A stretch of DNA of 64,000 nucleotides from Spirogloea muscicola (taxonomy: Eukaryota; Streptophyta; Zygnematophyceae; Spirogloeales; Spirogloeaceae). How positions within the stretch are numbered: the first letter of the stretch is position 1; each line of letters opens with the position of its first letter. Both the position numbers and the translations under genes were made by a program. Of this stretch, positions 3-64,000 are shown piece after piece. The notes beneath the pieces are model-generated. The model was not told the origin of the DNA. It was given only the letters and a program-made list of their open reading frames with translations, and made no database searches. Where the stretch lies: contig WELB01000029.1 in assembly GCA_009602725.1 (NCBI GenBank), forward strand, positions 330,946 to 394,945, in the 5' to 3' direction.

Positions 3-1252
3 CGCGGCCGCCTCGCGCGGGCCGCGTCCGCCACGCCCGCCGCCGCCCCCCGCGCTGGCGCCCTGGTTGTCAGAGCCGAGAAGGGCCAGTGGCTCCCGGG
101 CCTCGCTTCCCCGGCTTATCTGGACGGCAGGTCGGTCTGCGCCGCCTGCAGTGCATTGCCAGCAGGGCGGTCTGCGCCGCCTGCAGTGCATTGCCGGAGG
201 GAGGCTTCAGACCTCGGCCACTCGTGCGCGAAATCATGACGAGGGACTGGGTGTGCTCGTGAAAGCTTCGCATTATAGAAAGGCGCAGCACGATTCGTGA
301 CGGCCGCATTATACAATGTCAGCAAGCTGCTCACATGAATCCTACATTTGCTGCGCCCAGTCTGGCCGGTGACAACGGCTTCGACCCCCTGTCTCTCGGC
401 GAGGACCCCGAGAACCTTAAGTGGTTCGTCCAGGCGGAGCTCCAGAATGGCCGCTGGGCCATGCTTGGAGTGGCCGGCATCCTGATCCCCGAGGTCCTGA
501 CCAAGATCGGTATCCTCAATGTGCCGCTCTGGTATGACGCCGGTGCCGCCGAGTACTTCGCTCCATCCTCCACCCTCTTCATCATTGAGTTCCTCCTCTT
601 CCACTACGTGGAGGTCCGAAGATGGCAAGACATTCGCTTCCCAGGAAGCGTCAATGAGGACCCCATCTTCAAGGGCCAGAAGCTGCCTCCCAATGAGGTC
701 GGATACCCTGGTGGCATCTTCAACCCTCTTGGGTTTGCGCCCTCCTTGGAGGCAATGGAGAAGGAGCTTGCCAATGGTGGGTCCACTTGACCTGGACCTG
801 GCAGTATGTATGACTTGTCTTAGCGACTGTCCCAGGTCACAGAGGGACGTCACAGCTGCCTTAGCTCCTCGCTCGCCTTTGACCGAGCAGGTTTTACATG
901 TCAAATGTTGGTCTGCGTGGTATATCATGATGGATCCCGGGTTTCAGCTAAGCCCAGCAATGACATGAGCTTGTCTGTGGGAGCGCTTTGTTAGACTGAC
1001 AAGCACAGGAGCTCAAGGATGCTGTCTTAGTTATGCGATGGATGATGAGAACAACCCTCCAGGAGCTCACTGTTGTTCTGTCTGATTGCAGGCCGCCTGG
1101 CCATGGTTGCATTCTTCGGCTTTATCGTCCAGTCCCGCATCACTGGAGATGGCCCTTATGCCAACCTTCTCCAGCATCTGTCTGACCCGTGGCACAACAC
1201 AGTTTTCCAGAGCTTGGCAAACTTCTTTGCTACCAGGACCATTGAGACCTAG
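3..1252 (+). CDS. LHCA: Photosystem I light-harvesting chlorophyll a/b protein (Lhca4-like), 5' end outside window
   Basis: Exons 3-130 (continuing to the left), 361-776 and 1092-1252; phases agree at both junctions. The first part is an Ala/Arg-rich chloroplast transit peptide. The mature protein has [14 protein letters not shown], then [19 protein letters not shown], the helix-1 chlorophyll-binding motif around [11 protein letters not shown], a hydrophobic helix 2 followed by VRRWQD, and the diagnostic [10 protein letters not shown] and [12 protein letters not shown] segments. Helix 3 (ELANG-RLAM) is split by the second intron. It ends [10 protein letters not shown]. The family binds chlorophyll a/b and carotenoids in the thylakoid membrane around photosystem I. 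The PGSVNxDPIF segment is typical of Lhca4; assignment to an exact Lhca number is tentative. Only the start codon is missing. Confidence 0.93.
133..195. repeat. Two identical 28-bp direct repeats in Lhca intron 1
   Basis: Positions 133-160 and 168-195 are identical over 28 bp (offset 35 bp). They lie directly after the exon-1 donor and both carry the core GCCGCCTGCAGTGCATTGCC. The intron is 131-360. This is a local tandem duplication. Confidence 0.9.
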
Positions 1253-22622: not shown

Positions 22623-22704
22623 CGTGACCTGAGAGATTCGAACTCTCGCGGGTAGAACCCATGTACTTAGCAGGCACACGCCTTAACCACTCGGCCAAAG
22701 TCAC
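22623..22704 (-). tRNA. tRNA-Ser (anticodon GCU)
   Basis: 82 nt on the minus strand. The acceptor stem GTGACTT pairs with AGGTCAC (one T-G pair), discriminator G. The D arm has GGCCGAGTGGTTAAGGC, the anticodon loop is CTGCTAA (anticodon GCT), a long type-II variable arm is present, and the T arm is GAGAG-TTCGAAT-CTCTC. No intron and no encoded CCA. A T5 terminator follows. Reads AGC and AGU serine codons. Confidence 0.95.
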
Positions 22705-23507: not shown

Positions 23508-26367
23508 ATGGCCGTCGCCGCCGTCGCCGCCGCGCAGAGGGCCCTGGCGGTGGCCGCCCTCGCGGCGCTCGTGATGGCCCAGGTGGCCCTCGCTGTCGCC
23601 GACCTCCCGGCCGCCCGGGCGGTCTTCGAGGCTTACCTTGCGGGCCGCGACGCCTCGCAGGCCAACTCTGTGGTCCGCGTCCTCCTCTGGGCCGTTGGCA
23701 GAGTAGCTCTTGCCGATTGGACCCTAAACTGGACTGCCATAACGTCAACGTATCAGGCATCCTGGTGTTGGTCTTGATTGGAGGTGTTACAAAGCTGTGG
23801 TGAGGCCTTGTTGCCCCTGCCTTGTAGTCTGACCAACTCCTTGTGGGATTGAACAGGGCCTTGCCGAGCAGATTGCAACTTGTCGCCAATCTTCTGACTA
23901 CGATGTCTTCGTCAGCAACTTCTTTAGCCTCTGGGTCAACCTGAACAAGCCCTCTGGCTACAGTGCACATCACAGGCAACATCACCTTGCCAATTTTGCT
24001 GACAACTTGGAGTATATCGTCGACCACAACAGTCAAGGGAAGGCGTACCAGCTGGGTGTCAATCAGGTACAACAAGTACGCAGTTGCACAACAAGTAATG
24101 ATACATGTCAATAGCAAGCCGTCAGTGCAAAATCATAGGTCAGACCCTGACAACTGGTTATACCTTTCCATGTGCAGTTTGCAGATTTGACGCACGATGA
24201 GTTCAAGGCTACATACTTGGGTCTGCGCCTGGATGCAGGCAACACAGCCCTTCGCCTTGGAGGCAATCGCCCCTTTAGCCATGCTAATGTACAAGCCCCT
24301 GACGAGGTGGACTGGAAGGCCAAGGGTGCTGTTACTGACGTGAAGAATCAGATGCAGTGCGGTATGCACTGTCTCTGGTTCTATGGACTCGCTGCTTTCA
24401 TCTTCCTGAAGCTTGTCCATCTCAGACAATTGATTGACCAGTGGACATATGCTGAGTGGTTATTGAGAAGCCTTGTGAGAGATGTGTTCAGGTAGCTGCT
24501 GGGCTTTTTCAACCACAGGGTCGGTTGAGGGCATCAACAAGATTGTCACTGGCGAGTTGCTGTCACTATCTGAGCAAGAACTGGTGGACTGCGACAAGGC
24601 CCGTGACATGGGCTGCCAGGGTGGGCTCATGGATTTTGCCTTTGAGTTCATTATTCAGAATGGTGGTCTGGATACTGAAAAAGACTACCCCTATACAGCT
24701 GTTAATGGCCAGTGTGACCTCGAAAGAGTACGTGCCCACTAGCCTGTGTGATCATATGGAGGCTGAAGGACCCCAGCAGTTGGTCGTGGGAGCTGTCCTC
24801 ACATGACATAGTATTGTCATAGTCTCATTTGCTCCACCTGTGGTGGCTTTTGTAGGAATTGTAACATCAGTTTGTGCTGTGGTTGCTGAAGGAGTGCACA
24901 TTATATGCAGGGGGCTGTCTGCTCTCGGCTTTGAATGCATTGGTCTGCAAAGACGCCAGGCAATTTTCGGCGAACATGTGGTTTTCCAGCTAATTGGAGC
25001 TATAATTCTCCTCCTGGCAGGAAAACAGCCACATTGTCACGATTGATGACTTTGAGGACGTGCCGCATAACGACGAGGCCTCTTTGAAGAAGGCTGTTGC
25101 TGCTCAGCCGATCAGCGTTGCCATTGAAGCTGATCAGCGCCAATTCCAGTTCTATGCAGGGGTACGATTTAGAGTAACTAGGAGACTATGTAGACATGGT
25201 TCCACTGATGCATACTATTTAGGGCACAGCATGCATGTTAGCTTTCCTGATATGCTAGATGGTGGAGGGTCACAGTGGGTGAAATCGAGTTTCACGTGGA
25301 TTCTGCTGAGTAGGATCTCAATCATATTGGGTCAATCATGACGCTGTATATAAGGAACCTTGTGGGATTTTGCAGGGTATCTTTGACGACGAGTGCGGCA
25401 CACAGCTTGACCATGGCGTCCTCATTGTTGGGTACGGGGTTGATAACGGAACAGACTATTGGACCGTCAAGAATTCATGGGGCTCTGCCTGGGGAGACCA
25501 TGGTTACATTCGTCTGAGGAGGTACCTGATTGGCATACACATACATACACATCAAGCTGTTCGAACTCTCTGCACTTCTAGCTTAAATCCTTGTTTAAAT
25601 TCTTATGCAGATTATTGTCACTTTTGGTTTCTGCAGGAACGTGCAGGACAACCAGGGGCTCTGCGGAATAGCCATGCAGGCGTCCTACCCCATCAAAACT
25701 GGCCCCAATCCCCCCCCCGGGCCCCCTCGTCCGCCCACTCCTCCACCTGCACCCGAAGTCTGTGATCCCACTCACAAGGTGAGCACGCCAGAGGGGAAAT
25801 GCTGTTGTCATGAGGTGGCCAGGCAGCATGTCTGCTTGTGTGCTTGATTCTCACTCGACGCCTGAGGCTGCCGATGGCAGTGTGACCACGGCACTACGTG
25901 CTGCTGCTCTGTGCCTTTGGGCAAGTTTTGCCTGGCGTGGGGCTGCTGCCCGATGGAATCTGCTACTTGCTGTGACGACCACCGCCATTGTTGCCCAGTC
26001 GAGTACCCTGTATGCAACCTGGACGCTGGGCTGTGCATGAAGGTCAGCCACTGACATTTGTAAATTGTCATTACATGCACCAGATTCTGTGTTAGCTCGT
26101 AGACATCTCTCACAGGCTCCTCTGATGCTGGGGGTTCCTCCACTTGCTGGTCCTGCATGTGCGGGAGCTGGTTGTGCAGTTGCTTCAAGAATGTCAGCTC
26201 TACTTCTGCGTGCTTCTTTGCAGGGCTCCTCTCTCATGTGGATGGACAAAGGCGTTGACATGCTTGAGCAGAGCCCTGCTCATTTCCATTGGCCGTCAAT
26301 TCACGATGCTCTCGGCCGCAAGTCTGGACCAGGAGATGTCCAGCTGCAATCTGTTGCTGACCAGTAA
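23508..26367 (+). CDS. Papain-family cysteine protease with C-terminal granulin domain (RD21-like)
   Basis: Exons 23508-23669 (donor uncertain), 23857-24066, 24178-24361, 24492-24727, 25021-25161, 25376-25521, 25637-25778, 25881-26042 and 26224-26367. Order: signal peptide; I29 inhibitor prodomain ([34 protein letters not shown]); peptidase C1 with the oxyanion Gln and catalytic Cys in [38 protein letters not shown], catalytic His in [11 protein letters not shown] and Asn in YWTVKNSWG; a proline-rich linker; and a granulin domain with [15 protein letters not shown] spacing plus paired cysteines ([17 protein letters not shown]). A 48-residue tail follows. The catalytic triad is intact. RD21-type enzymes act in vacuoles or are secreted, and the prodomain and granulin are removed during maturation. 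Confidence 0.93.
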
Positions 26368-44573: not shown

Positions 44574-47500
44574 TCAGCCATTCTCGGCCAGGTCGTATGA
44601 GTTGGACTTGTGCTTGGGGACGAACGAAAAGTTGGCCGGCGTTGGCCCCAGAAGCATCTCGCTTAGCTTAATCTGCGCAACATACCGGACGACGTTGCCT
44701 GCGAGCGTCAGCGTGCCAGACAACAACCAAACCAGCACAGCAAATGTGAGCGCTAGGCAGCAATCCTAATGTGGTGAAGTCACACCCTCAGCTTCCAGCC
44801 TGGCTAATGACAATTTTGGACCATATCATGGCAGGACCAACTCCGTTGACATCACCTTGACAGGACAGTAGGTGACTTAAGAGCTCTTTCAGTGCCTCCG
44901 TATGCAGAAGGCGGTGCTGTGGCTTACCCAGTCATTGGCCTGATCAGAGGCCATGAGCGTCTCGAGGTCGTTTCTGCCGAAGTAGCTTGGCGGCCGCCAG
45001 TTCATCTTCTGCGGAAGTATGTCCAGCAGCCCGACTGGGATGTATCTGTGCAGGAAGCCCAGCCACTCCAGAAGGTAATGCCGCGTGGTCTCCACACCTG
45101 CCAAAAGGCTTTAAGGTTTAGCCAAGCCACACAGATGAGATTTGCAGGTAAGAGTCAGCAGCCATGGATGTTTCCACAAGCTTGTCTTCCATAGTCAACA
45201 CAGTATTCAAAGTGCGAGGCTCCTGCAAGTCTGGAGCGATGAGGCGTAATCCAGAGGCAAATTAGACTTTCAACCAGAGCGGAGTGACCACAGCACATGA
45301 GTGCCTCAGATTGTGAAAGGACGAGCAGCAGCCATTCCGACCATGCGTCCTGGACTCGGCACGCCCCGTGCTCTGACAAATAGTACAGTGGCGAACCTTT
45401 GGTGTCAGAACCCCAGTGCTCGAGCCCAAAACGAGCATAGTCCTGCAGGATCGCGAATCGCTCTCCCGAGCTGATGTCCCAGTGGCGCTGCTCCTTGATT
45501 TCAGTCAAGAGCCACGGCTGTGCAAGCGAGACAAAAAGTGGTGTCAGCTGGCAGCAAAAGACACAAACTTGAAATATCGACAGCTGCAATGTGGTAATCA
45601 TGAAGTCACTCTATGCAAATACAGCTAGATATGGAACTCACTCATACTCTTACTTTGCAGGAACTGTAAAAAAGTGATCAACTGCTATAAGATACACACA
45701 AATCTTATTGTAAGTGCAAGTTTTTCATTGAAGGATTGGAAAGACCTTGATGAGCACTCCGCGTGCCAGCATGCAGGTGTCCACTCCAGGGCCCCCAGCG
45801 GCCATGCGCTCATTCCAATCGGTGAAAGAGAAGACGTCACCATTTCCAATCACCTAAGACAAGGGGTGGCTTTACTTTAGCTTCTGGCAGCAGCCATTGA
45901 AAAGTCACCAACACCCATTGTAGAATTTCTCTAACGAGTGCTTATTTCCCAAAATGCCGCTCCACTCCACTCCAGAAAAGGTGTCACAAATATTCAGCTG
46001 ATGGCAGCTCACCAAAATTTCAGCATACAAGAAGGTGGCCTTGAAGTGATTACCTGCAAGGATGACGGTGCACACTCCCGGCACTTCCGGATGTAGTCCC
46101 AGTCCGCCGTCCGGCTGTACCGTTGCTGTCGTGTCCGGCCGTGGACGACGACCGCCGAGGCCCCCCAGTCAGGGAAGTTCGGGATGAGGTTGTGAGCGCA
46201 GTTCTTGCCCTCATAGTACGCCATGCGCACCTGTAGTGGTATACATGACAGGAGGTGTTAGAGCGATTGACGGGAAAATTGGTCAACATCCCCAATGCTC
46301 TATTACAGACCTTGACATCTAGTAGGTAGCTAGTGTGTTTCGGATGTAGCCTCTCAGAAGCCAAAAGCTACATGCTTCACCTTGCAGTGGTTCGTGAACA
46401 AGGCCTGTAGTATTACAATATTTGCGCTTCTGGAACTCAATTGAGCAGCGAAGTGCTGCTGACTATTGTGAAAGAATAAGCAAGGCTGATTCCTAAATTG
46501 GAACCTATCAAGTGATTGACCTTGACAGTGAGGCTGCTGTCGATGGCGGCAGACGTGGCACGCAGGCACTGCTCCAACCTCATCGGCTTTGTCAATAGGC
46601 AGGACCCAGCACCCTACCAACCACAAGGGAGAGTTGGGTCAATAAGGGCCAACAAGTAAACCTTCTGTCACAACCCAGACCCTGAGAACTAATCATCTCG
46701 ACCGCTGACCTACTTGCGACCATGCAAGTGGGTTGCCCATGCGGCAGTTGCTTCAAGAGCCAGTCATGGGTCTTCAGTGAAATCATAAATGCAAGTTTCA
46801 AGCCCTCCCTCTTGAGCTAAGTATTTGCAGCCAAACGAAGCCGCAAGGTGCGGATCGCACACAAGCAGGGTTGAAGATAGTTTGCATCAGGTTACTTTGC
46901 AGCGTCCAGCCCGATCTTCATCAGCAGAGTATGGCAATAATAGCAGAAGACCCTGAGCCCTGAGTCCTACCCCTAAGCTCTGCGGCCTTTGAGCTGGGTG
47001 GCTGAGCTGACATGGTTTCAGTGAGAGCCCAAGAGCATGAGTCCTTTGAAATGGCCAACATTTTGGAGACATAGGCTCCTTGAATGCGCGTTAATTTACG
47101 GGTTCGCATTGTAATGGGTGCATTGCACAGTACGTAGCATCTGAGGGCCTCACCTTGTTCACCACGAGATCAATGGGGCAGCCCATGTTGATGTCAAGGA
47201 AGTCAATCTGAGCCGCCGCCGCGAACTCACGAGCTGCAGCGTCAATAGGCGGTCTGATGCAACAACAGGGCCGACGAGGCAAGAAGACACCATGAGGACC
47301 TCCCTCCTCAGCCAAGAGCAGCAGAAGGAAGAGGCGCACTCAGCGTCTGAGGTCTGAGCCTAGACGCTGCACAAACTTGATCCCAAGTCCGTCAAGGGAC
47401 GCCCACCTGGCACTCGCGCTCGACGATCTCGGCGGTGCGTGCAAGTGTGTCGGGGTGCGCGCCACAGATCTGCACGCCAAAGACGTCCTCACTTGCATGC

Positions 47501-50466
47501 CGCCGCAGTAGCGCCCACTCCGACGCCTGGCCCTGTATCCAAATCCCAGCATGAGGTCTGGCAAATGCCGCAATGGCGAACCTTATATTACAAGCGGGGC
47601 AAGGTCAATACAGGCATTTGTTACTGCAGAACAGACATAGACAATTAATACTAACCCCAGGTAAATTTCAGGTCCCAAGTTGATGGCAATCAGGAGGACA
47701 AAGTGGGCACAGAGGCACTCGCCTGGAGCAGATTGGTGCACATGGCCATCTCGCCGCACGTGATGTCGGCGCCCAGCGTCTTGGCGACGCGGCGGAAGGG
47801 CAGGTTCCCGACCGTCGTCAGCGGCGCAAGATACAGCTTGCCGCGGAAGTCGACCACCTGCCGCTCCCGCGGAGGGGCCCGAGCTGGCTCTGGAGCCCCA
47901 GTATTGACGTCCCCATGTGGAAATGCTACTGTGGCCTCGCTGACGGACCCATTCACACCACTGCCAGTGGAAGCGCCATCTTGCTCCTCAAGGGCGTGGG
48001 AGCCGCCATCCTCCACCATCCGTGGCCGCTTGACGCCATCGGCCTCCAGCGCGTCCTCATTCCCACTGTGGAGAGCCATGCCTTCCTCCAATGAAGCCGG
48101 CTCGCATTCACCGACAATCTCCTGGACCTTCCGCTTGAGGCCCTCGCTGGCATCTTGAAGGCCGTCATCGCCCTCCTTGCCAGATGTATCGTCCAGCACC
48201 GCGTCCTCGCCAGGCAGTCCTTTCGGCGGGCGCACCTTGCCCTTGCTCTGGAAGCACAGGCCATTGAGTATGAGCAGCACTGTCAGGCACTTGTGGGTCC
48301 TGTTATGTTTCTGAACCCGCTAATTAATGGAAAACCATCAAGAGCTAGTCAGTCCTCACCTCTCAACCCATCTGCCGAGCCTTCAGCACTCCTCTCACAC
48401 TCCCTAGCCACTTGCTAGCCGTAAGCAAGGCACACTACTCCTTCCAAAGCACAGATTGTACACCTATTTGATTGACTTTACTATCTAATTCATCAACCCT
48501 CGGGTCAAAGAAGTTTGGCTTACTCAGGTAGTCTAATCTATTTCCTACATCTACTAACAATCTGCACATCAGCATAGCTAACAGACTGGCAGGTAGAAAA
48601 GTTGTATGCGGTTGCAAGTTAGGCACCATGGGCTTAAGGTTCATACTTGCTGTCCTTACCAGGAGGCCATGTGCGCGAAGGTATGCATCGGCGCGTGGGA
48701 ACGCGACGCGGTTCTTCCACAGGAGTTTCTGCAGCTCCTTGCTCAGGCCGTTCGCCTCTCCCTCGGGGCCTTTCTTCTGCGCGGCCCCTTGCTCAGGGGC
48801 GACGCCCGCTGCTTCCACGCCGTTTGTGGGAGCGGCGTGCCGCCCTGCGAAGCGGCAGGCCAGCCCGAAAGGGCACGGGTAGAGCTTGCCGGCAAAGGGG
48901 CAGTCGCCGTCCAGGTCGGCAGGTTTCTGCAGTCAACCACAAATATGATGCTCAGAGAGTCAGTCCCGATGAGAGTTAACGGACTCTATTGTGACATTGA
49001 TACCATGTGTTGGAAATAGTGCTGGGTGCTTATAAACAAATGTTACTGAAAAGCCCATGCCAACACCCATTCCCCGTTCACTCTCTGTCTCGCTCGTGAA
49101 GGTGTCAGGGAGGTATCCAGTCCTGCAGAGGCATGCTGACCACTTGCTGGCCGCGGACTCGCTGAGGAGCAGATGTGCAAGACTTGAGCTGCGACTGTCC
49201 CGCTCTCAGACAACCACCCGCCATCATCCAGGTTCACCAATTACTCTAAGACGGGACCCAACGCTTGCGACTACATGCAAAAGGAAGTGAAGGCGAGAGC
49301 ATTTTGGGCTAGGAAGGAAGGGCAGAACTGAGGTGGCAGCCCAGGGCTTTGACTTCATGGAGGTCTGAAGCCTCAAGTCTTGACGACCCAGCAATCGACG
49401 AGTAATAGATTGGGACTTCCAAGAATCCTGAGTGTACGTTAAAAGTGGGTTCAGAACAGAAGCAAGAGGGCAGTACCGGCTACCTGGGCAAGGAAGCCCG
49501 CCAGGTCATGGTTGAAGCGGCAGGCGGCACCATAGGGGCAGGCATCGGTGCGGCCGGCCCGAGCCACTGCTGCACAGACGTGCTCTGCTGACACCTTTGC
49601 CTGCATGACGAGGCGGGACGGGGCGGGGCGATCAAATTGGTGCTCAATTGTTGCAGAAGCATAGGGCAGGGCAAATGGAAGGGGCCGCACCTGGTCAATC
49701 AAGATCTCCTACACGGTCAATGGAACTGTAAGCCAACAACAATTTGATCTCATTCTGAGAAATAGCAGCTATAGCGCCTAGTGACACAAAAGCAAGGCTG
49801 CAGAAGACGAAGATGGGCTGCTGATCATCAGAAACTATCAACGGCTTTTATTCCCGTTTCCATAGGTTCATGAACGGGTGGGTATATTTCCAGGAGCTAT
49901 TGGGGATGGTCCAGTTATTAGTATCAAGAAGTGTTCTAGAAATGATATGCAACTCTCATGTGTGCTAGTCTGGTGTCGAGATATACATAAGCAGTGTTAG
50001 AGGTTTAGACATGCATTGGTCTGAGATCCGGTGAAATACCTGCTGCCTTTCCCGCTTCTGCTGCCGCCGGGACTTCTTGCCCGCCGGCATGCCCGCCGCC
50101 GTCGGTGGCGCCGGCACCGCAGGCGCCGCCACTTGAACCCTACTCTCCAGATTCCCAGTCTCAGCACTCAAGGCTGAAGTTCCTTCCGTCTGCTCTGGGG
50201 GCTTTCCGCCCTCCTTGGCCGACGAGCCCCGTGGCCGCAGGTACTCCCGCTTCACCGGCGCCCGGTTTTTGGCAACCAGCTCCAATGGTGTGAGGAGGGT
50301 GGTGTCTGCCAGGCCGCTGCGGGCAGGTGGAGCTTCTGTGCTTCCTGCGGTTGGGATGGAGCAGCTGGCTGGCCGTCAGCTGCCCAAGGGACTCGGGCGG
50401 GGGATAATGCAGGCGAGGCATGAAGGAAGGCCGGCTCATGAAGAGAGGGAGGCAGCGGTGACTGAG

Positions 50467-54302: not shown

Positions 54303-57300
54303 ATGGCGCCCGCGGCGGCGGCCATGACGGGCCCGAAGGCGCTGCTCTGGGCCGCCGTGCTGCTGAGCTGCTGTGCCGCCGGCGCACTCGCCGCCTGCGG
54401 CGCACCAGGTGGGCGCCCACATCCTGCCGGGCTGTTCGTCCTGAGGTCCCCTTCTGCACTGTGAAGCATGGCCCTGGCCAGGTCCCACTGACAGTGCCCT
54501 GCCGCCGTGGCCGCAGCGGGCAGCCTCGTGGGGCAGGAGAACTGCCTTCCCGGCGCCGGCGCGAGCTGGCGGCACAGCGTCGACCTCAACATCGTCGGCT
54601 TCTCTGACGACATCAGCTACGAGCCCGGCAGCGCTGTCAGCTTCAAGGTGGCTCCTGGGCCCCCCCTCCCTCGTGGAAACTCTCTGTCTGCCTCGTCCTT
54701 CCCTTTCCCTTCCCTTCTCGAGCTTCTGTGCAAAACCCATGTTAGCCCCACTGCGAGCTGGTCAGCTCACAGTATCTCCTCTTGCAGCCTCCTTGCCATT
54801 GACGACGCTGTTTGCAATGCAAGCCCGAAGGTCGTCAACTTCGGGCAGCATGCGTGCCCTTTGCTGCTTGTGCTCACTGGCTGTCACCACTGTTGGGGCT
54901 GTGCCTGCTGCCTTCCGGCACTTGTGCAGATCAAGGTGGCCACTGGCAAGACTTTTGCGTCTCTCAGCGTGCTGCGGCTCGGTTGGTACAACGGCGACGG
55001 AGCGCGCGTGGTGACTACGGCACCTGTGACGGCCACCGGCACCGCCACGCAGCCGGCGTGCGCTTACAACTCAACCACGGGCCTGGAGGACTGCGGCAAC
55101 TGGGCCACGACTGCAACGTGGACAATTCCAGCCAACGCTGTCTCTGGTTCGTCATCTTTACATACTCTCCCCTCCCTCCAAAGGCTTCCCTCTTAGCTCT
55201 GGGCTTGTTGCACAGGCCTCCACAGTCCCGCATCCGAGCTTCATTTCTAACACCATCATGTGCTGGTAGTTTTGTTCGTGACACTGGAGCACGAGGCAAC
55301 AAACTATACTTAGTGGAAAGTGGCTACAGTTCTTACTCTTGGTCTCTACGCTTGCCGTTGTGGTCCTCACCAACTCGTTAAATCGCCACTTCCTCACTCC
55401 TCAGGTGTTTACTCACGTCCTCGTCATCTTTGCAGGTCTGTATTTGGCACAGCTGCAAACAACAGGCAACCTGTACAACTATGTTCCCTTCATCGTTCGA
55501 CAGCGTGCATCAGACACTGCTCCATCGGCCATCCTCTTCCAGACTTCTGACACAACCTGGCAGGTCCAGCTTCCTTAGCCGTCACCTATGCAAGATTTTT
55601 CCACGTTTCCCCTTCTCAACTCATGGTAGTGGCTGCTACCACAGAGAGGCCATTGCCATTAGCGGGGCTCCGGCAGAGGGTGCATGGGTGATGAGCAGAA
55701 AGGTTGTATTCTCGTCCACGCCTTCATGTTTGCATAGCTGTCCTATTTGAGGAAGTATGGTCACCACCTGCATCCCTGGTCTGTAAGTAGCACCTGAAGA
55801 CTGTCAAGACCGTGGTGCAACTTGGCTGCGTCTGTTGAGCTGCCTCCTGTGCGTTTGCAGGCGTACAACTTTTACGGGGACATGGGCAACAGCTTGTATC
55901 GTGGCAAGGGCCCTGGCAATGGGGCCTCGTCCGGCAGAGCATACAAGGTTTGGCCATGACAATAAAACTTTGCCTTCATGGTCTCAAGTCCTTTTTGCAT
56001 AGACAAGCCCAGGGCCTGTGAGCAAGCAGAGTCTGCTCGGTGACACTCACATCGAAATTTAACCCTGAATTGTCTTGCCATACTTATGTGCAGGTCAGCT
56101 ATAACCGGCCGTTCATCACACAGACCGGGGACTCAGTGAGCAACTCTGTCACAGGGCCGCAGGACTTCCTCTTCAATGCTGAGTACCCCATGATCCGGTG
56201 GCTTGAGCGCAATGGGTACGACGTTTCCTACTTCTCTGGCGTCGACAGTGATCGCTATGGCTCGCAGATCCAGGTATTTCCATTCTTGCTGGATAAGCAT
56301 GTAGGCAGCTATGAGCGAGCTGCTTCAAGGTCAAGGGGCCAGCATTGCACAAAATTCAAGTACTTGTAGATATGCTACATGATGCACAAGTCATGTAGCA
56401 CTACACCGATGGTGGCACTTTGACTTCACTCTAGATTGCATTTTTACTGGAATACATCCTTTCATGTGACTTTCGGTGCACGTTGATGCAGCTTCACAAG
56501 GTATTCATATCGGTCGGCCATGATGAGTATTGGTCTGGCGGCCAGCGGCGAGCTGTTGAGGCAGCCAGGAACACGGGCGTTCACCTGGCATTTTTCTCGT
56601 GAGAGTTCCTCCGCTGCAGGCCATCAACTGGCATGCATAAGAAAAGTGACTACAAAATCTGACTTTCACCACGTCAACGTGCCTTCAACAGGGGCAATAC
56701 TGTCTTCTGGAAGACGAGGTGGGAGGCTGACCTGAACAACAAGGCCTACCGCACGCTCGTCTGCTACAAGGAGACGCATGAAAACGCAAAGATTGATCCC
56801 CTTCCAACCGTCTGGACAGGTTGCCTCTGCTCCTGACGTAGCAGATAGCTCTGGTTTTCTCATGCTTGCATGCAACACGTCCAAGTGCAAGCATGTCTGA
56901 GCAAGCCCCTACTCCGCCACTGCTCATTTGCATTGCTGTGTAGCACTCTGCTTATGTCATTACTGTATAGTGCATGTTGCTGCTGTGTCAAAGTGCACGC
57001 CTCTGCAAAACGTACATGGTTCCTGTACCAGCCAGGCGACTTGAAACAGCCAGGTTTGCCGTAGAGCGATTATGGACTACAGCGAGGACTGACAGCCTCT
57101 TTCTCTATCAGGGACCTGGAGAGACAATCGTCCTTTTGTGCCCTCTGGTCCTGATGGAGGTAACCAGCCAGAAAATACTCTCACAGGACTCATTTTCCTT
57201 GTGACTGGTGGTACCGTGGATTTGCAGGTGAGAGGGCTGTATAGGCTAGTGTACAATAGAATGCTTATTGATAGAGAAGCCTGCTCTATCGTGCTTAGGC

Positions 57301-60300
57301 TCACACCGTGTCCACAATATGCATGCTGACTGTGCACATGATTTTGTCTCACACAGTGTATCGTACATTAGACATGCAAGCACTCTGTGCTTCACAGCAT
57401 GTCTAGGAGGAGAATTACAATAAAGGATTTCTTGTGTGATTTATTGGAGACTGTTGTGCTTGTGGTGCAGGTACCTGTCAGCGCCAGCCGATTGCGGTTG
57501 TGGAGGAACACCGCGGTGGCCTCGGAGACGAGCACAACCACCCTGGTCCCAGGCACAGTTGGTTACGAGTGGGACGTCGACACTGACAACGGCCTTCGTC
57601 CTGCTGGTCTGCACGAGAAGGGCCTTTGACCTCTATTAACTTTCACATTTAGTACATTTGAGTGCTGAATTTACAGAGATCCATTGTCAACCTTCACCCG
57701 TTTTGCTGCAAGTTCAGCAGGGTGCCATGACTTGTCCAACACTGGTAGCTAACGAAATTGTCAATATCTGGCAGGGCTCATTCTGCTGTCCAAGACAGAT
57801 GCGCAAGGAGTATCTGTGCTGGTGGACCAGGGTTCGAACTACGTTGACGGGCCTGCCACGCACACGATAAGCCTTTACAAGTGGGGCTCTCTACCAGCTA
57901 TGCTTATGTGCTTATGCATGTAAACTGTCCACAAAGTGGATCACATTAACATGTTTTTGCAGAGTGCTCTGCAAAGCCCCTGCTGACAATCAGAGGTGGC
58001 CTGGCTTTGGAGGCAGACACGCCAGTGGAGCCCTGGTGTTTGCATCTGGCACTGTCCAATGGGCATGGGGCTTGGATGGAACCCACGACCGTCCCGAGAA
58101 CTCGCCAACTGCTGTTGACCTCCAACCAATGCAGCAGGCCACAGTCAACCTCTTTGCTGATATGGCGGTCTTCCCTGCCACCATCCAGGTTTCCCAGCCT
58201 TGTCATGTGACAGCATGTTTTTGTTGCCCACTCTGTGAGCCTTACCCATAAAATTAGATGCTAAAATGTAAAGATCCAGAAGTAGATTCACAACATCAGC
58301 ACACACGACTTTTCCTAGTATTACATTTAACTGGACAGTGACAACCTTGACACCTCATCTGCGTGCGGCGCAGAGCAACCTGGTGTCCAGCACCGCTTCG
58401 ACGGACACACTGGCGCCAACAGCCAGCGTTGACTCTTACCCGCATTCGGGGTCCTCCTTGGCACAAGGAGCCTCTGTTACAATCAGTGGGAGCGCGACTG
58501 ATCCGGGCTCGGAGGCGAGCGCCACCCAGATTGGCTCCGTCGAGGTCTCCACTGATGGTGGCGCTACCTGGCACCCCAGCACCACTCTAGTGCGCAGCTC
58601 AACAAGGTGCACAATTGCCGCCAGGCGTGATGATCCTTTAGTCAGCCCTCCTTGACTCTTCTGAGCGTTGCGCTTGAGATGCCATGCACAATGTGGGGTC
58701 CGGAGAGCAATACAACCCTTGCCGGCTGCTTTAGCTGATTGCTGTGGCCAAGTGTAACCCACCTAATAAGTCATTGTTTGTGGCGTGCACCTGCAGTGCT
58801 ACCTGGACATACAGCTTCACAGTCTCCAGCAGCAACTCCTCCCTCAGCCTCAGCCTTACGGCACGCGCCACGGATGACAGCCTCAATACAGGGGACGCTT
58901 CTGCGAGCATATTGGTCGTGTACCAGATGTCAGGGCAGCCAGCTGTAGGTGGTCCTGGCTCGCCAAGCCACTGCCCTTGCAGGATCTTTGGGGACAGCTT
59001 CCCAGCACCCGACCTTGTTGACGTGTCTGATGGGGTGAGCCACCGCGACAAGTAATTTGGGCATCTCACAACCTATAGTTGTACGACCTACAATTAGACA
59101 ACCTGCACGTAGATTCTGTCTAATTCAGTGAGGTCTTTCTGAGAACATAGGTGGGGCGAAGCTGACAACCAACGATGTTGTAGAGGAACTGATGTGGACT
59201 AGACATTGTCGCTTGCTGCCCTCTAACAAGGGCAAATGTGTTAACAGCATCCTATCACCGTCGGCAACAAGGTGTACTTCCAATCAGATGGCTATGTCAC
59301 TGGCATGCGTCACTATGCCAGTGTCAGCAGCTACTCCTACACGGCCCGCATCTACCAGGAGAATTGCACTCTCCTTGGGCAGGTCAGTCATTCTGCCCGA
59401 GTTGAAGGGGCTAACCACGTGCATGTATGTAAGACCGGCTGATTTGTATGTTAAGGACGTGGAGACTCCCTATATGAGCTTGGGTGTTGACCTGAAAGTG
59501 ACATAGCACAGATGTTTGTTGATCTCTGCTGGAATGACCTTCACCTCTAGTTGTCTTGATGACGCTTGGCTGCCACTTGCAGGCTGCTTTCCCCGTCGTT
59601 TCCACCGCAGGCTGGCAGAATGTTTACTTTCCTTCCCCTGTACAAGTCACTGCAGCTACTACATATGTGGCAGCAGGTCGATAATCAATGCTCCAGACAG
59701 TCCTGTGCATGTAGCAAAGAACAACTATTACATTGTTTGGAACAATCTTGGCTCTACTTTTCAATACTCATCATGTGTGTGCTCTGAGCTTGTGCTCGCA
59801 CTCGGTGATTGCAGTGTACTCACCGGATGGTAGATACAGTGACACAAATGGCTTCTTCGGAAGCATCACCAGTTACTCCGACTCGCAAGTGGCATTTGGT
59901 CAAGGAAATACCGCCGCCAGCCCCAACAATGTCTATATCTATGACAACGCATGCCCCAATGGTCCAGGCAGCTCGACTTATCAATCAGCCAACTACTACA
60001 TTGATGTCATCTTTGATTACGTCCCCGGCAGTTCAGATCCTCCAGCTGTAAGATCTTATGATGCACAGTATCTCCCATCTTTGCTGCTTACACCAATCAA
60101 GCTGGCAGCTCAATTTGCAGCTGCATGCAGGCTTACATGCTATCACATGTGCAAGTCTTACTCATGCAATGAGGTGACAACCTGCAGGTGCTTAGTATTA
60201 GTCCGGCAGATCAGGCCACAAGCGTGCGTACAAGCATAAGTTCAGTCATTGCTGCGTTCACCGAAAGCCTGGACCCTGCGACTGTGTCATCAAGCACCGT

Positions 60301-63300
60301 GACACTGATGGATGGTGCCAGCCCAGTTCCTGTAAGTGTCTCTCCTGTCTCACGATTTTCCCATGCTGTAATTAGAGGGCTCGCTGTGCTGTCATTCAGG
60401 TGAGCTAGCCTTGTGTGCATATTATGGCTACCACTCACAATTCGAGTAAAGCCTTCCAGTTACTCATTATGGCTTAATTGGCCCTGGCAGGGAATTGTCA
60501 GCTACGATTCCTCGCAGCTCGCAGTTGTCTACACACTGTCCAACAGCCTCGACGGGTCAACCAACTATGTGCTGACGATCAAGGGCGGGACAGGTGGGGT
60601 GAAGAACACTTTGGGGACACCGCTTTCTTCAGATTTTACCTCAAGCTTCACCACCGGTGCTGCACCCATCACGCTGCCAGATCCCAACAGCGATAACGGC
60701 CCAGGTATGCTTTGTGTTATGGGGATATTGCTCCAAGCTAGAGTGTGGAGTCAGACTCGTGTCCGCTGCAGATCAGAAGTATGTGGAACCTTGGGTCATC
60801 AAGAGCAAGTCAACTTGCTATTGACCAGTGAAGGGCACCGGGACCTGGGGCCGTCGTTACAAAGGGTCCTCTAATTCAATCAACTAGCTTGCAGGGGGCC
60901 CAATCTTGGTAATTGTCAGTACCACCAATAAGTTCTGCCGGTACTTTGGCGAGATCTTGCGCGCCGAGGGCTTCAACTTGTTCACAATCAAGGACATTTC
61001 GGCCGTGACCAGCGCGGACCTCACGGCTGCTGATGTGGCCATTCTTGGAGACATACAGGCCGTGACGGCTGCACAGGCAAGCAAGCACAAGCAAAGTGTC
61101 TGTGATATAGTCGCGCCAACAGGGCGTGGCAACTTGCAAGAAACATGCTCGTGCAGATGTCGTATAATGGGGACCCAAGTAGCATTCGATCAGACTGGCC
61201 TGCAGATTCCTCGGCTCTGCAACACAATGTCTCACATGCATCTGCGTTGGGCACCTTGGGCAGGTCTCGTCGTTGTCCAACTGGGTGGCTGGTGGCGGGC
61301 GACTGATAGTCAGCAGGCCAAGCACGCTCTTTGCCTCCCTCCTCGGGCTCACCAGTGTCTCGGGCATCATCAGTGAAGGCTATTTCCTTGTCGACACTAC
61401 TGTGGCACCTGGCAAAGGTACACATATGTCAGCACTTAGGCATCTCAGGAAAGGTATGCAAGGATTGTTTAGACATCCACAATTTCTGCTGCTAGAAAGA
61501 CATGTACATCAATATCAACGTCCATATTTGTCCCGTACTTGCAGGCCTGACATCTGAGTCGATGCAGTACCACGGGACCAGCGACCAGTGGCAGGTCGAT
61601 GCTGCAGCTTCTCCAGCTACCAGGAGGGTGGCCAGCCTCTCGGCGACGGCAACAGCGAGCACCGGGCTGGTGGCCGTCAGCTTGCGGACAGTGGGCGTTG
61701 CAGGCGGCCAGGTGGCTGCATTCACGTTTGACATTGCACGTTCCGTGGTGTACACAAGGCAGGGCAACCCAGCGTGGGCAGGCCAGGAGCGCGACATGAT
61801 CAGCCCCAAGCGTTCAGATGACCTGTTCGCCCCCCAGCCCTGGCATCTGCAATGCTATCAACCACTGGAAATTATGGACCATTCAAGTGCAATAGTAGAC
61901 CCTTGAATATTACGTGTGGATCCACCTTCAGAGCTAGTCTTGAAAGTGGTGCCAAGATGCAAGACATGCCCTCCCCAAGGGCTGCATTAATGACAGGAGT
62001 TCGTGTAATCATGACACAATCTGACAAGAGAGGTCTACGTTGCTGTATAGCAGATCAGGCACTGTTACTGCTCTCTGAGTCGTGTACATGCCCATGCAGA
62101 TTCTACGGCGTGGTCGGCCAAGAGTGGGTGAACCGCGACAAGGTGCATATCCCTCAGGCAGATGAGCTGATGCGGCTACTGTCCAACGTCATCCGTGCCC
62201 TGACCTTTGACATCAAGCCCCTCCCCAAGCTCTGGTACTTCCCCAACTACTACAAGGTGGTCGTCATCCTGACGGGCGACGAGCACGGGGACGGCAATGT
62301 CGCTAGTCGCTTTGACAACCTGATGGTGACGCTCTATTTCATCTGGCCAACTCAGAAGTAGACCCACTCCATCAGGCGAATCTTAGATCCCACATCACAG
62401 ATCCTTACCATATATAGACACAGTTGTATTTATCCTAGTGCTAATACTTAAGTAGACCCCACATTGCGTCCTGCTATCTTCCCTGGCAATATCTTGACAT
62501 ATCGACAGCAAGCTCCTTGTAGTAGCCTGACCTCATTCAACTCAAGCTCGTGCTGTTGTGGGCATTGCCACCTTGCTAGGCTGCCGATCCACCGAGCTGC
62601 AACCTTACAAGGTGGGAGTGCATCAGGGGTTCCTCGTACTTCTACCTGGGTGGCTCCTTCAGCAACACGCAGGCCCAGGTCCACTGACTCCTGCCCATGT
62701 CTTGTGCCAATGCATAATGGTTGTTGCTTTATCAAGTCAGACGCTAGCTTACCTACGTCAGTCTCAATTGCTTAACTTCTTGTGGGCCTGGACTTGCAGC
62801 ACTATCAATCTCTTGGTTTTGAAATGGGAGTGCATGTGAACACCGGCTGCGCCGACTGGACACCAGCAACTTTGGACCAATTCTACGTTGACCAGCTAGG
62901 CTCATTTGGTGAAAAGTACACGTCAGTGCCACCGCAAACGACGCACCGCACGCACTGCATTGCGTGGAGCGACTGGGCGACGCAGCCTAAGGTGGAGCTC
63001 AGCCACGGTGGGCCGTACTGAACCACCTTCACCTGGACACAGGCCTCTTTCACATTGTTTTCTGGCACGCAGAATGCTTAGAAACAGCAACAATCATCAC
63101 TGTGTACCTTATCTGCAGGCATTCGGCTGGACACGAACTACTACTATTACCCTCCTTTCAACACGCAGGGCCAGCCTGGCTGGATCTCCGGCACGTATGT
63201 CGGCCACATGTCTGGCTCTGCCCTTCCCATGAGGTGCGTCCACTTAAGCTGACAGCATTGACACCGAGCAGTAGCAAGTGGAGGAGCCACCTTACCCACG

Positions 63301-64000
63301 TCGTTTGACTGTATGTGCTGCTGACACGTTCTTTGAGGAGTTTGACAGTTACTCCTGGCAGTTACTTAACGCCCATGTTTCATCACACAGATTTGCAGAC
63401 CTTGACGGGCAAATAATTGACGTTTTCCAAGTGATGACTGAGATGACGGATGAGTCAGGCCAGACATACCCGAGCTTTGTGAACACGCTCCTGGACGCAG
63501 CTCTCGGCGCGCCACAGTACTACGCCGCTCTGACAGTCAACGCTCACTCCGACTCGGAGCCCAATCCTGTGACCCAGGCGATCGTTGCGGTGACCATCTT
63601 GCTGCCTAGAAGAACCCTGTGACATAGTCGCAGGGCACATATTGCATGCTTGAGATGGATGGGCTTATGCAATATGCAGGTCACAAGAAAACCACAATCT
63701 GATGGTTGACAGTTGGTCGCTTTGTGCAGTCAAGCAAGTCGAGGAACACGCCAGTCGTCAGTGCTACTCAGATGCTCCAGTGGATCGATAAGCGGAACAA
63801 GGTGTCATTCAGCAACATTGTCATGTCGCCGGCTAGGGACTCACTGACGTTCACCGTCGCCACCTCGGGCAGCTTCCCCTGGGGCGTTACATCAACCCTG
63901 CCTACCATCATCAACTCGGGTATGTGCTCTTCACAAGTCAATCAAGGGGCTCTGATGCCATGACCCTGGGTTTCACCACATCCAGCTGGAGTTGGCGGTA
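54303..64000 (+). CDS. Giant secreted protein with bacterial-type N,N-dimethylformamidase-beta/DUF4082/Ig-like architecture, 3' end outside window
   Basis: Exons: 54303-54408, 54517-54647, 54930-55146, 55436-55563, 55861-55947, 56094-56273, 56492-56598, 56692-56819, 57112-57227, 57471-57606, 57775-57880, 57963-58188, 58374-58606, 58797-59034, 59248-59382, 59583-59676, 59815-60047, 60188-60331, 60491-60704, 60895-61076, 61264-61417, 61545-61824, 62100-62325, 62580-62678, 62800-63007, 63119-63233, 63391-63589, 63730-63919, 63986 onward. All phases agree; about 1,540 codons so far, still open. A signal peptide is followed by an N,N-dimethylformamidase-beta-like region (about 40-560: VFISVGHDEYWSGGQRRAVE, GALVFASGTVQWAWGLD), an Ig/FN3-like domain (to about 700), DUF4082-like (715-865: VYFQSDGYVTGMRHY), an SbsA/Big_5-like Ig domain (870-970: SISPADQATSVRTSISSVIA), an amidotransferase-like fold (987-1190: LSNWVAGGGRLIVSRPS) and a polysaccharide-deacetylase-like end (VVVILTGDEHGDG, GFEMGVHVNTGCADW). 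Probably extracellular; substrate unknown. Confidence 0.88.

What the first reader, a model, noticed from the sequence alone, without database searches (positions are those of the whole stretch)
54303..64000. Bacterial-type multidomain secreted protein carried as an intron-rich algal gene
Seen: 28 in-phase introns with the same splice style as neighbouring genes, a signal peptide, and over 1,540 codons. Known: the combination of N,N-dimethylformamidase-beta-like domain, DUF4082, SbsA/Big_5 Ig-like domain and a deacetylase-like end is typical of large bacterial secreted proteins. Inference: an old bacterium-to-alga transfer that gained introns, perhaps acting on cell-wall or extracellular polymers. 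The beta-subunit-like region is usually named after an amide hydrolase, but that activity is unproven here.
Basis: partly seen in the sequence, partly recalled or inferred. Interest (0 to 1): 0.85.

Follow-up and report, generated by a model that had tools for sequence, protein, structure and literature searches.

The report
Bacterial secreted enzyme gene in alga
A green alga carries, cut up by at least 27 introns, a large secreted-type protein whose relatives found here are bacterial, probably an enzyme that trims chemical groups from sugar polymers outside the cell; it looks like an old bacterium-to-alga gene transfer, but the donor and the activity are unproven.

Summary
Confirmed: one plus-strand gene starts at 54303 and runs off the window, with 28 exons, 27 complete introns (26 GT-AG, one GC-AG), a 28th donor at 63920 and 1,519 open codons, not 1,540. 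Exons 2-28 align to intronless bacterial ORFs; 22 of those 26 junctions are gap-free on both sides. Pfam finds DMFA2_C, DUF4082 and Big_5. Twelve bacterial ORFs match colinearly over nearly the whole protein (43-49% identity), so the architecture is bacterial. A rooted tree puts module 1 inside a bacterial subfamily (100/100) but cannot say whether it nests within it or is its sister (AU p 0.616). No donor is named; no eukaryotic collection could be searched. Module 1 keeps the DMFase iron-site residues that could be aligned. Module 2, modelled on a bacterial relative, resembles NDST1 and polysaccharide deacetylases but lacks their HxxxH motif. Some bacterial copies sit beside surface-polysaccharide genes. 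Best reading: an old transfer of a secreted two-module amide hydrolase acting on extracellular amino-sugar polymers; origin well supported, function inferred.

The parts
54303..63919 (+). Gene (28 exons in window; continues past the window end). Exons: 54303-54408, 54517-54647, 54930-55146, 55436-55563, 55861-55947, 56094-56273, 56492-56598, 56692-56819, 57112-57227, 57471-57606, 57775-57880, 58017-58188, 58374-58606, 58797-59034, 59248-59382, 59583-59676, 59815-60047, 60188-60331, 60491-60704, 60895-61076, 61264-61417, 61545-61824, 62100-62325, 62580-62678, 62800-63007, 63119-63233, 63391-63589, 63730-63919
   Evidence: exons 2-28 aligned to intronless bacterial ORFs
54303..54408 (+). Exon 1: signal-peptide-like N-terminus
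   Evidence: judged by eye, no predictor run; no bacterial support for this exon
54963..58077 (+). Module 1, DMFA2_C (residues 91-501, exons 3-12): predicted metal-dependent amidase/acylase fold
   Evidence: Pfam PF20254 E 2.6e-102; bacterial proxy folds like N-acetyl-(R)-beta-phenylalanine acylase E 1.1e-21 and DMFase E 1.3e-17
55864..55899 (+). Y196 (55864-55866) and Y207 (55897-55899), candidate metal ligands
   Evidence: Y207 aligns with DMFase Y440; Y196 column is Y in 50 of 50, its match to Y399 is by analogy
56519..56527 (+). H293-D294-E295 (GHDEYWS): E295 aligns with DMFase E521, H293 with H519
   Evidence: each 50 of 50
56696..56698 (+). N321, aligns with DMFase N547
   Evidence: 50 of 50
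58416..58839 (+). Ig-like linker (weak Big_7 match, residues 553-630; exons 13-14, interrupted by the intron 58607-58796)
   Evidence: E 1.9e-4, below the curated cut-off
59008..60002 (+). DUF4082 (residues 687-834, exons 14-17)
   Evidence: E 6e-24
60036..60655 (+). Big_5 Ig-like domain (residues 846-952, exons 17-19)
   Evidence: E 3.4e-13
60895..63919 (+). Module 2 (residues 969-1519, exons 20-28): alpha/beta ThuA/GATase-like domain followed by a NodB-like barrel; predicted polysaccharide-deacetylase-like unit
   Evidence: bacterial proxy model pLDDT 95.4; Foldseek best hit human NDST1 E 8.8e-8, chitin and polysaccharide deacetylases at 1e-5 to 1e-4; weak ThuA/DUF4350/GH42M profiles in relatives
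62278..62286 (+). D1234-E1235-H1236, candidate base and metal ligand (TGDEHG)
   Evidence: D 84 of 84; next column D 78, E 3, N 3; H 83 of 84 in bacteria
62833..62850 (+). H1294 ... C1299 (HVNTGC)
   Evidence: H and C columns each 84 of 84; no His at +3 to +5 in any row
62953..62958 (+). H1334-C1335 (RTHC)
   Evidence: each 84 of 84
63545..63547 (+). H1442, candidate catalytic acid (NAHSD)
   Evidence: 84 of 84
61077..61263 (+). The single GC-AG intron (CAG|GCAAGC)
   Evidence: gap-free junction

Best explanation
A bacterial gene for a large secreted protein was taken up by a green alga long ago, kept as one polypeptide, and filled with spliceosomal introns (shown: gene structure and near full-length bacterial colinearity; inferred: direction and age). 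The protein is exported (inferred from a signal-like N-terminus). Module 1 holds a mononuclear metal site of the 2-Tyr-1-Glu kind, as in Paracoccus DMFase and its acylase relative, and would cleave an N-acyl (amide) bond (inferred). DUF4082 and Ig-like domains act as spacers or sugar binders (inferred). Module 2 pairs an alpha/beta domain with a NodB-like barrel, as in NDST1 and Agd3, and would use a divalent metal, an Asp base and a His acid to remove acetyl groups from amino sugars in a polymer (inferred). Together they would de-N-acylate an extracellular amino-sugar polymer, in bacteria a surface polysaccharide, in the alga a wall or mucilage glycan.
For: Gene structure and junction support. 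Algal neighbours: chlorophyll a/b-binding protein, DUS3L-type CCCH and Dus exons, papain protease. Window GC 53.9%, exon 58.2%, intron 49.1% match the 53/59/49% published for Coccomyxa subellipsoidea (PMC3446292, passages). Twelve colinear bacterial ORFs; both modules in one ORF in 33 of 79 loci (24 in the algal order, 9 reversed), in neighbouring ORFs in 18 of 79, module 2 only in 28 of 79, which suggests that the modules act together. Alga inside the bacterial subfamily at 100/100 against 12 bacterial outgroup rows. The alga agrees in 132 of 139 (module 1) and 95 of 106 (module 2) columns that are at least 95% conserved in bacteria; Y207, H293, E295 and N321 align with DMFase Y440, H519, E521, N547. 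Folds. Bacterial neighbourhoods: Bac_transf in 2 of 96 and 6 of 106 nearby ORFs, Hexapep 6 and 5, GFO_IDH_MocA 3 and 4, against 70 Bac_transf matches in about 102 Mb of 16 of those genomes, chosen by me; the Sinorhizobium pSymB copy of module 2 lies among polysaccharide genes.
Against: The algal branch is long (0.79-1.09 changes per site against a median of about 0.2); a tree with the alga sister to all core bacteria is not rejected and even has a slightly higher likelihood (AU p 0.616). Only prokaryote, plasmid, phage, viral-contig and PDB collections were searched, so 'bacterial' relatives are what could be found. Module 2 lacks the HxxxH metal motif of CE4/CE18, and the alga has Glu where 78 of 84 bacteria have Asp next to the base. 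Foldseek scores for module 2 are modest (TMq 0.33, rmsd 12.1 for NDST1); Polysacc_deac_1 matched 1 of 84 relatives. The neighbour ORFs include related genera, are only those up to 700 aa of non-duplicate loci (202 of 247), and most neighbour families are not polysaccharide genes; the Pararhizobium copy and the Rhizobium and Paenarthrobacter module-1 copies are not in polysaccharide clusters. Structures were predicted for a bacterial relative, not for the algal protein. No expression data.
Confidence: 0.6

Rival explanations
1. The transfer is real, but the protein no longer (or never) acts as an enzyme: it is an extracellular matrix or adhesion protein whose two enzyme-like folds bind sugars.
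For: Ig-like and DUF4082 domains; no HxxxH in module 2; Glu instead of the usual Asp beside the base in the alga; I found no report of an activity (the DUF4082 search listed one paper, a secretome study, seen as a listing).
Against: Retention of the invariant polar and metal-type residues of both modules over a long branch.
Confidence: 0.22
2. The gene came with the plastid ancestor (cyanobacterial endosymbiont) and is an old endosymbiotic gene transfer.
For: Heterocystous cyanobacteria carry the family (9 of 79 loci), and a cyanobacterial row has the highest identity to the alga in every tree made. Odds raised from 0.08 to 0.10 on rereading this.
Against: Where both modules were found in cyanobacteria (6 of 9 loci) they are separate neighbouring genes in the opposite order to the alga; cyanobacteria form their own clade without the alga (100/98), and by path length they are not clearly nearer than other phyla, though the alga's place is unsure.
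Confidence: 0.1
3. Vertical inheritance from the common ancestor of eukaryotes, with loss in most lineages.
For: The algal row is not shown to nest within the core bacteria, and eukaryotes could not be searched.
Against: The domains bear bacterial names and the relatives found are bacterial, in several phyla; this is weak, because only prokaryote-type collections were searched.
Confidence: 0.05
4. Artefact: bacterial contamination, a chimeric assembly, or exons of several genes joined by eye.
For: The gene runs off the window; no RNA-seq; three junctions have indels beside them.
Against: 27 frame-keeping introns with splice signals like those of a neighbouring gene, and colinearity of the spliced product with single bacterial ORFs from exon 2 on.
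Confidence: 0.02

Closest known systems
Bacterial 'DUF4082 domain-containing' / 'Ig-like domain-containing' secreted-type proteins (colinear ORFs in Caldilineaceae L010, Chloroflexi L013, Acidobacteria gp4 L021, Hymenobacter L023/L034, Dyadobacter L025/L069 and others)
   Same: Whole order module 1 - Ig-like - DUF4082 - Big_5 - module 2; 43-49% identity (41-47% by BLAST)
   Different: No introns; the 12 ORFs run on for at least 272-1,912 more residues; what follows in the alga lies beyond the window
N-acetyl-(R)-beta-phenylalanine acylase (PDB 8huy, 8i59, 8i5a)
   Same: Fold of module 1 (Foldseek E 1e-21 to 4e-20); the HxE motif and the WQAY-like stretch align
   Different: 12-13% identity; a larger chain; named for a small N-acyl amino acid, not a polymer
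Paracoccus N,N-dimethylformamidase large subunit (PDB 6lvb)
   Same: Fold (E 1.3e-17); Y440, H519, E521, N547 equivalents kept
   Different: 15-16% identity; DMFase has a small subunit (abstract and passages), which was not searched for here; no DUF4082, Big_5 or module 2 noted; Y399 equivalent only by analogy
NDST1 N-deacetylase region and Agd3 (CE18)
   Same: Alpha/beta domain followed by a metal-dependent deacetylase barrel; Asp and His residues in comparable order
   Different: No HxxxH; no sequence-level match to NDST1 in the PDB search; Agd3 was not among the 50 listed fold hits

Membership tests
Pfam PF20254 DMFA2_C | Score above the curated cut-off | tested here: met
   343.5 bits against 27
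DMFase-type 2-Tyr-1-carboxylate metal site | Equivalents of Y440, E521, H519 and N547 | tested here: met
   Y207, E295, H293, N321 by profile alignment; residue roles from PMC7686228 (passages)
DMFase-type 2-Tyr-1-carboxylate metal site | Equivalent of Y399 | tested here: inconclusive
   Y196 column is Y in 50 of 50, but the DMFase stretch with Y399 was not aligned
DMFase | Small subunit beside the large one | not tested
   no search was run for it
DMFase | DMF hydrolysis | not testable with these tools
   no assay
DUF4082 (PF13313) and Big_5 (PF13205) | Score above cut-off | tested here: met
   85.1 against 28.4 and 50.7 against 23.6 bits
CE4/CE18-type polysaccharide deacetylase | Metal-binding HxxxH motif | tested here: not met
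   no His at +3 to +5 of the conserved His in any of 84 bacterial rows or the alga
CE4/CE18-type polysaccharide deacetylase | Deacetylase barrel fold | tested here: inconclusive
   Foldseek hits to NDST1, chitin and polysaccharide deacetylases, E 1e-7 to 1e-4, for a bacterial proxy
CE4-type polysaccharide deacetylase | Polysacc_deac_1 profile | tested here: not met
   no match in the alga at E 0.1; 1 of 84 relatives
Bacterium-to-eukaryote transferred gene | Spliceosomal-type introns in a eukaryotic neighbourhood | tested here: met
Bacterium-to-eukaryote transferred gene | Placed inside a bacterial subfamily, with a bacterial outgroup | tested here: met
   100/100 for 67 core rows plus alga against 12 outgroup rows
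Bacterium-to-eukaryote transferred gene | Nested within the core bacterial rows, donor identified | tested here: inconclusive
   AU p 0.616 for the alga outside the core
Bacterium-to-eukaryote transferred gene | Patchy distribution among eukaryotes | not testable with these tools
   no eukaryotic sequence collection was on hand apart from PDB chains

The most novel reading that the evidence does not exclude
This is a eukaryotic holder of an undescribed class of secreted tandem amide hydrolases: one polypeptide joins an iron-type (2-Tyr-1-Glu) amidase to a divergent NodB-like deacetylase with its own metal motif (D-x-H ... H ... H), removing N-acyl groups from amino-sugar polymers. The pair was found here in seven bacterial phyla (module 2 in eleven), is tied in part to surface-polysaccharide loci, and was taken over by a green alga for its own wall or mucilage.
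Probability: 0.3. Interest if true: 0.7.

Novelty: new variant of a known kind. Interest (0 to 1): 0.5.

Why it matters
Bacterial genes in algae are known (an Asterochloris genome paper reports some; passages); that most are short and single-domain is my recollection. Here a 1,500-residue, multidomain bacterial architecture survives whole after gaining 27 or more introns, a good case for studying intron gain in transferred genes. The family looks unstudied: the DUF4082 search returned one paper, the dimethylformamidase search 13, none about algae by title or opening abstract, and the search for dimethylformamidase with alga and horizontal gene transfer none (listings, open-licence papers only). 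If the predicted chemistry holds, it would be a new way to de-N-acylate extracellular polymers.

Tried and rejected
Viral carriers: pattern scans of viral contigs gave no relative, nor did tblastn of module 1 against phages. The genome of the window is not held. Trees of module 1, module 2, both joined, and module 1 with distant and then nearer outgroups gave no supported donor; in the module-2 tree, rooted by me on L007, the alga sat with Chloroflexota at SH-aLRT 13 and 54, inside a 25-row clade at 89. In one search five outgroup rows had branches of 3.4-9.2 and one of ten (L098) was too short to use, so that tree is not relied on. Further Chloroflexota, Pseudomonadota and Acidobacteriota genomes (91 of 400, 25 of 398, 17 of 297 with a match to module 1) held nothing nearer than the 60% identity of the already known G203 and G206. 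I considered that the two modules were joined in the alga (on the plasmids listed they are separate proteins) and rejected it. I considered CE4/CE18 membership for module 2 and rejected it on the missing HxxxH. I considered the stop at 62362 as the gene end and rejected it, since intron 62326-62579 keeps the frame and exon 24 aligns to bacteria. Rows left out: one search has 87 of the 91 module-2 stretches (without L084, L026, L008 and a second L055 copy); one search has 54 of 55 (without L084); searches also leave out L026 and L059; searches scanned 202 of 247 neighbour ORFs (31 over 700 aa and 14 of L026, L027, L033 and L084 left out).
Full report
WHAT IS THERE. On the plus strand a gene starts at 54303 and is still open at the window's end. 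Frames were found from the ORF list and joined at splice sites: 28 exons, 27 complete introns and a donor at 63920, 1,519 codons without a stop, 39 and 52 stops in the shifted frames. All introns but one are GT-AG; 61077-61263 is GC-AG.

INDEPENDENT TEST OF THE MODEL. Twelve intronless bacterial ORFs were aligned to the spliced protein. Exons 2-28 have mean identities of 0.26-0.70. Of the 26 junctions between exons 2 and 28, 22 are free of gaps on both sides; junction 14/15 has a gap in 1 of 12 bacterial rows; junctions 2/3 and 13/14 have gaps in all 12 bacterial rows within three residues, and junction 6/7 lacks two columns in the alga. The exact splice points of those three are therefore less sure. 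Exon 1, the signal-like stretch, is not supported by homology (0.11).

THE HOST. Exons elsewhere in the window encode a chlorophyll a/b-binding protein (263-787 plus), a papain-type protease with an I29 propeptide (about 23.8-25.8 kb plus), and Dus and DUS3L-type zinc-finger exons (46.0-48.9 kb minus). The papain gene has five frame-keeping GT-AG introns, four with GCAG acceptors. Base composition (53.9% overall; exons 58.2%, introns 49.1%) matches that published for Coccomyxa subellipsoidea C-169 (53/59/49%; PMC3446292, passages). This suggests, but does not prove, that alga or a near relative.

DOMAINS. Pfam gives DMFA2_C 91-501, DUF4082 687-834 and Big_5 846-952; Big_7 is just under its cut-off; 960-1519 has no match. 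NCBIfam gives only weak matches far under their cut-offs.

BACTERIAL RELATIVES. On plasmids, tblastn with the whole protein matched 190 records, none covering 80% of it in one place; the best listed places cover module 1 to DUF4082. Module 2 alone matched 29 records; the annotated ones looked at are separate proteins of 729-788 codons. That looked like a fusion made in the alga. The scan of bacterial and archaeal genomes removed this idea: 313 relatives of module 2, best 80 kept as 79 loci. In these 79, both modules lie in one ORF in 33 (24 in the algal order, 9 reversed), in neighbouring ORFs in 18, and module 2 alone in 28, some of which are short contigs. Twelve ORFs match in a single alignment. 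The algal order in one ORF occurs in Bacteroidota (8), Actinomycetota (6), Chloroflexota (4), Acidobacteriota (3), Thermodesulfobacteriota (2) and one unplaced record. In all, the pair was found in seven phyla and module 2 in eleven. Viral and phage collections gave nothing.

TREES. Quick trees of each module and a careful tree of both joined left the alga on a long branch (0.79-1.09) with no supported partner; the row of highest identity is cyanobacterial each time. With 12 nearer bacterial outgroup rows of the same Pfam family, 67 core bacterial rows plus the alga form one clade at 100/100. Whether the alga nests inside that core or is its sister is not decided: the tree with the alga outside has a likelihood higher by 5.3 log units and p-AU 0.616. 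The other rows come from prokaryote genomes and plasmids, the only kinds of record searched, so transfer from bacteria is the simplest reading but not the only one; an old event or fast change would explain the branch.

HOW IT MAY WORK. Structures were predicted for the Caldilineaceae relative L010 (module 2: pLDDT 95.4, pTM 0.94; module 1: 90.5 and 0.92). Module 1 folds like N-acetyl-(R)-beta-phenylalanine acylase (E 1.1e-21) and DMFase (1.3e-17). A profile search aligned DMFase Y440 and E521 with Y207 and E295 of the alga; the Y440A and E521A mutant entries 6lvd and 6lve differ from 6lvb at just these aligned places. H519 and N547 are kept too (H293, N321). In 50 bacterial rows the columns of Y196, H293, D294, E295 and N321 are invariant and that of Y207 is Y in 47. 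Module 2 hits human NDST1 first (E 8.8e-8, but TMq 0.33 and rmsd 12.1), then alpha/beta domains of GH42-type and other glycosidases, GMP synthetases, and chitin and polysaccharide deacetylases. NDST1 and Agd3 both place an alpha/beta domain before the deacetylase barrel (PMC10864358 and PMC7229062, passages). Residues D257, H317, H357, H457, C322 and C358 of the proxy are 84 of 84 and H259 is 83 of 84; the alga keeps all. The HxxxH pair of CE4 and CE18 is absent, so it is not filed there. The position after the base is D in 78, E in 3 and N in 3 of 84; the alga has E. PelA spaces base and metal Asp by two (PMC12022489, passages), so H1236 may be the ligand here; this is inference.

WHAT IT MAY DO. 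Among 202 ORFs next to the bacterial genes, sugar transferases (Bac_transf) are 2 of 96 and 6 of 106, hexapeptide transferases 6 and 5, GFO_IDH_MocA 3 and 4, DegT aminotransferases 2 and 2. In 16 of the same genomes, picked by me, Bac_transf occurs 70 times in about 102 Mb; at roughly one gene per kilobase (recalled) the neighbourhood rate is tens of times higher, with the caution that related genera are counted more than once and that most neighbours are unrelated to polysaccharides. The Sinorhizobium meliloti pSymB copy of module 2 lies between dTDP-rhamnose, aminotransferase and export genes, and the Falsirhodobacter copy beside one gene named exopolysaccharide biosynthesis; the Pararhizobium copy and the Rhizobium and Paenarthrobacter module-1 copies do not. 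A Chlorella wall study reports glucosamine from chitin-like polymers (PMC8759652, passages), so a substrate of that kind exists in another trebouxiophyte. An N-deacylase of extracellular amino-sugar polymers fits all this; no activity has been shown.

VERDICT.

Noticed in passing
window 23833-25843 (+): Papain-type cysteine protease gene with I29 propeptide and five introns; its tail reads like a Cys-rich granulin-type extension (by eye).
   Followed up: partly
window 263-787 (+): Chlorophyll a/b-binding protein ORF of 175 codons (Pfam E 3e-32).
   Followed up: partly
window 46012-48932 (-): Dus domain exons and a weak DUS3L-type CCCH zinc-finger match, a eukaryotic tRNA-dihydrouridine synthase gene.
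   Followed up: partly
window 22623-22704 (-): tRNA-Ser gene, anticodon GCT.
   Followed up: no
window, ORFs of alignment A9 (places not traced): Fructosamine kinase and glycosyl transferase family 3 matches.
   Followed up: no
L010, L013, L021 and nine other loci: In the 12 colinear bacterial ORFs at least 272-1,912 more residues follow module 2; the algal gene may also go on past the window.
   Followed up: no
L005 14560-19988: In one Sinorhizobium meliloti strain the module-2 gene is followed at once by three recombinase/integrase genes, and its end overlaps the first of them.
   Followed up: no
L022, L027, L032, L041, L048 and similar: Cyanobacteria, gamma- and betaproteobacteria and one Chloroflexales record carry the two modules in the reverse order (genes or ORF), which suggests repeated joining and splitting of the pair.
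   Followed up: partly
window 55861-55947 against L002, L003 and L025, L031: The stretch after the WQAYN motif has an insertion that looks in part like that of rhizobial plasmid copies and in part like that of Bacteroidota copies; not used for placing the alga.
   Followed up: no
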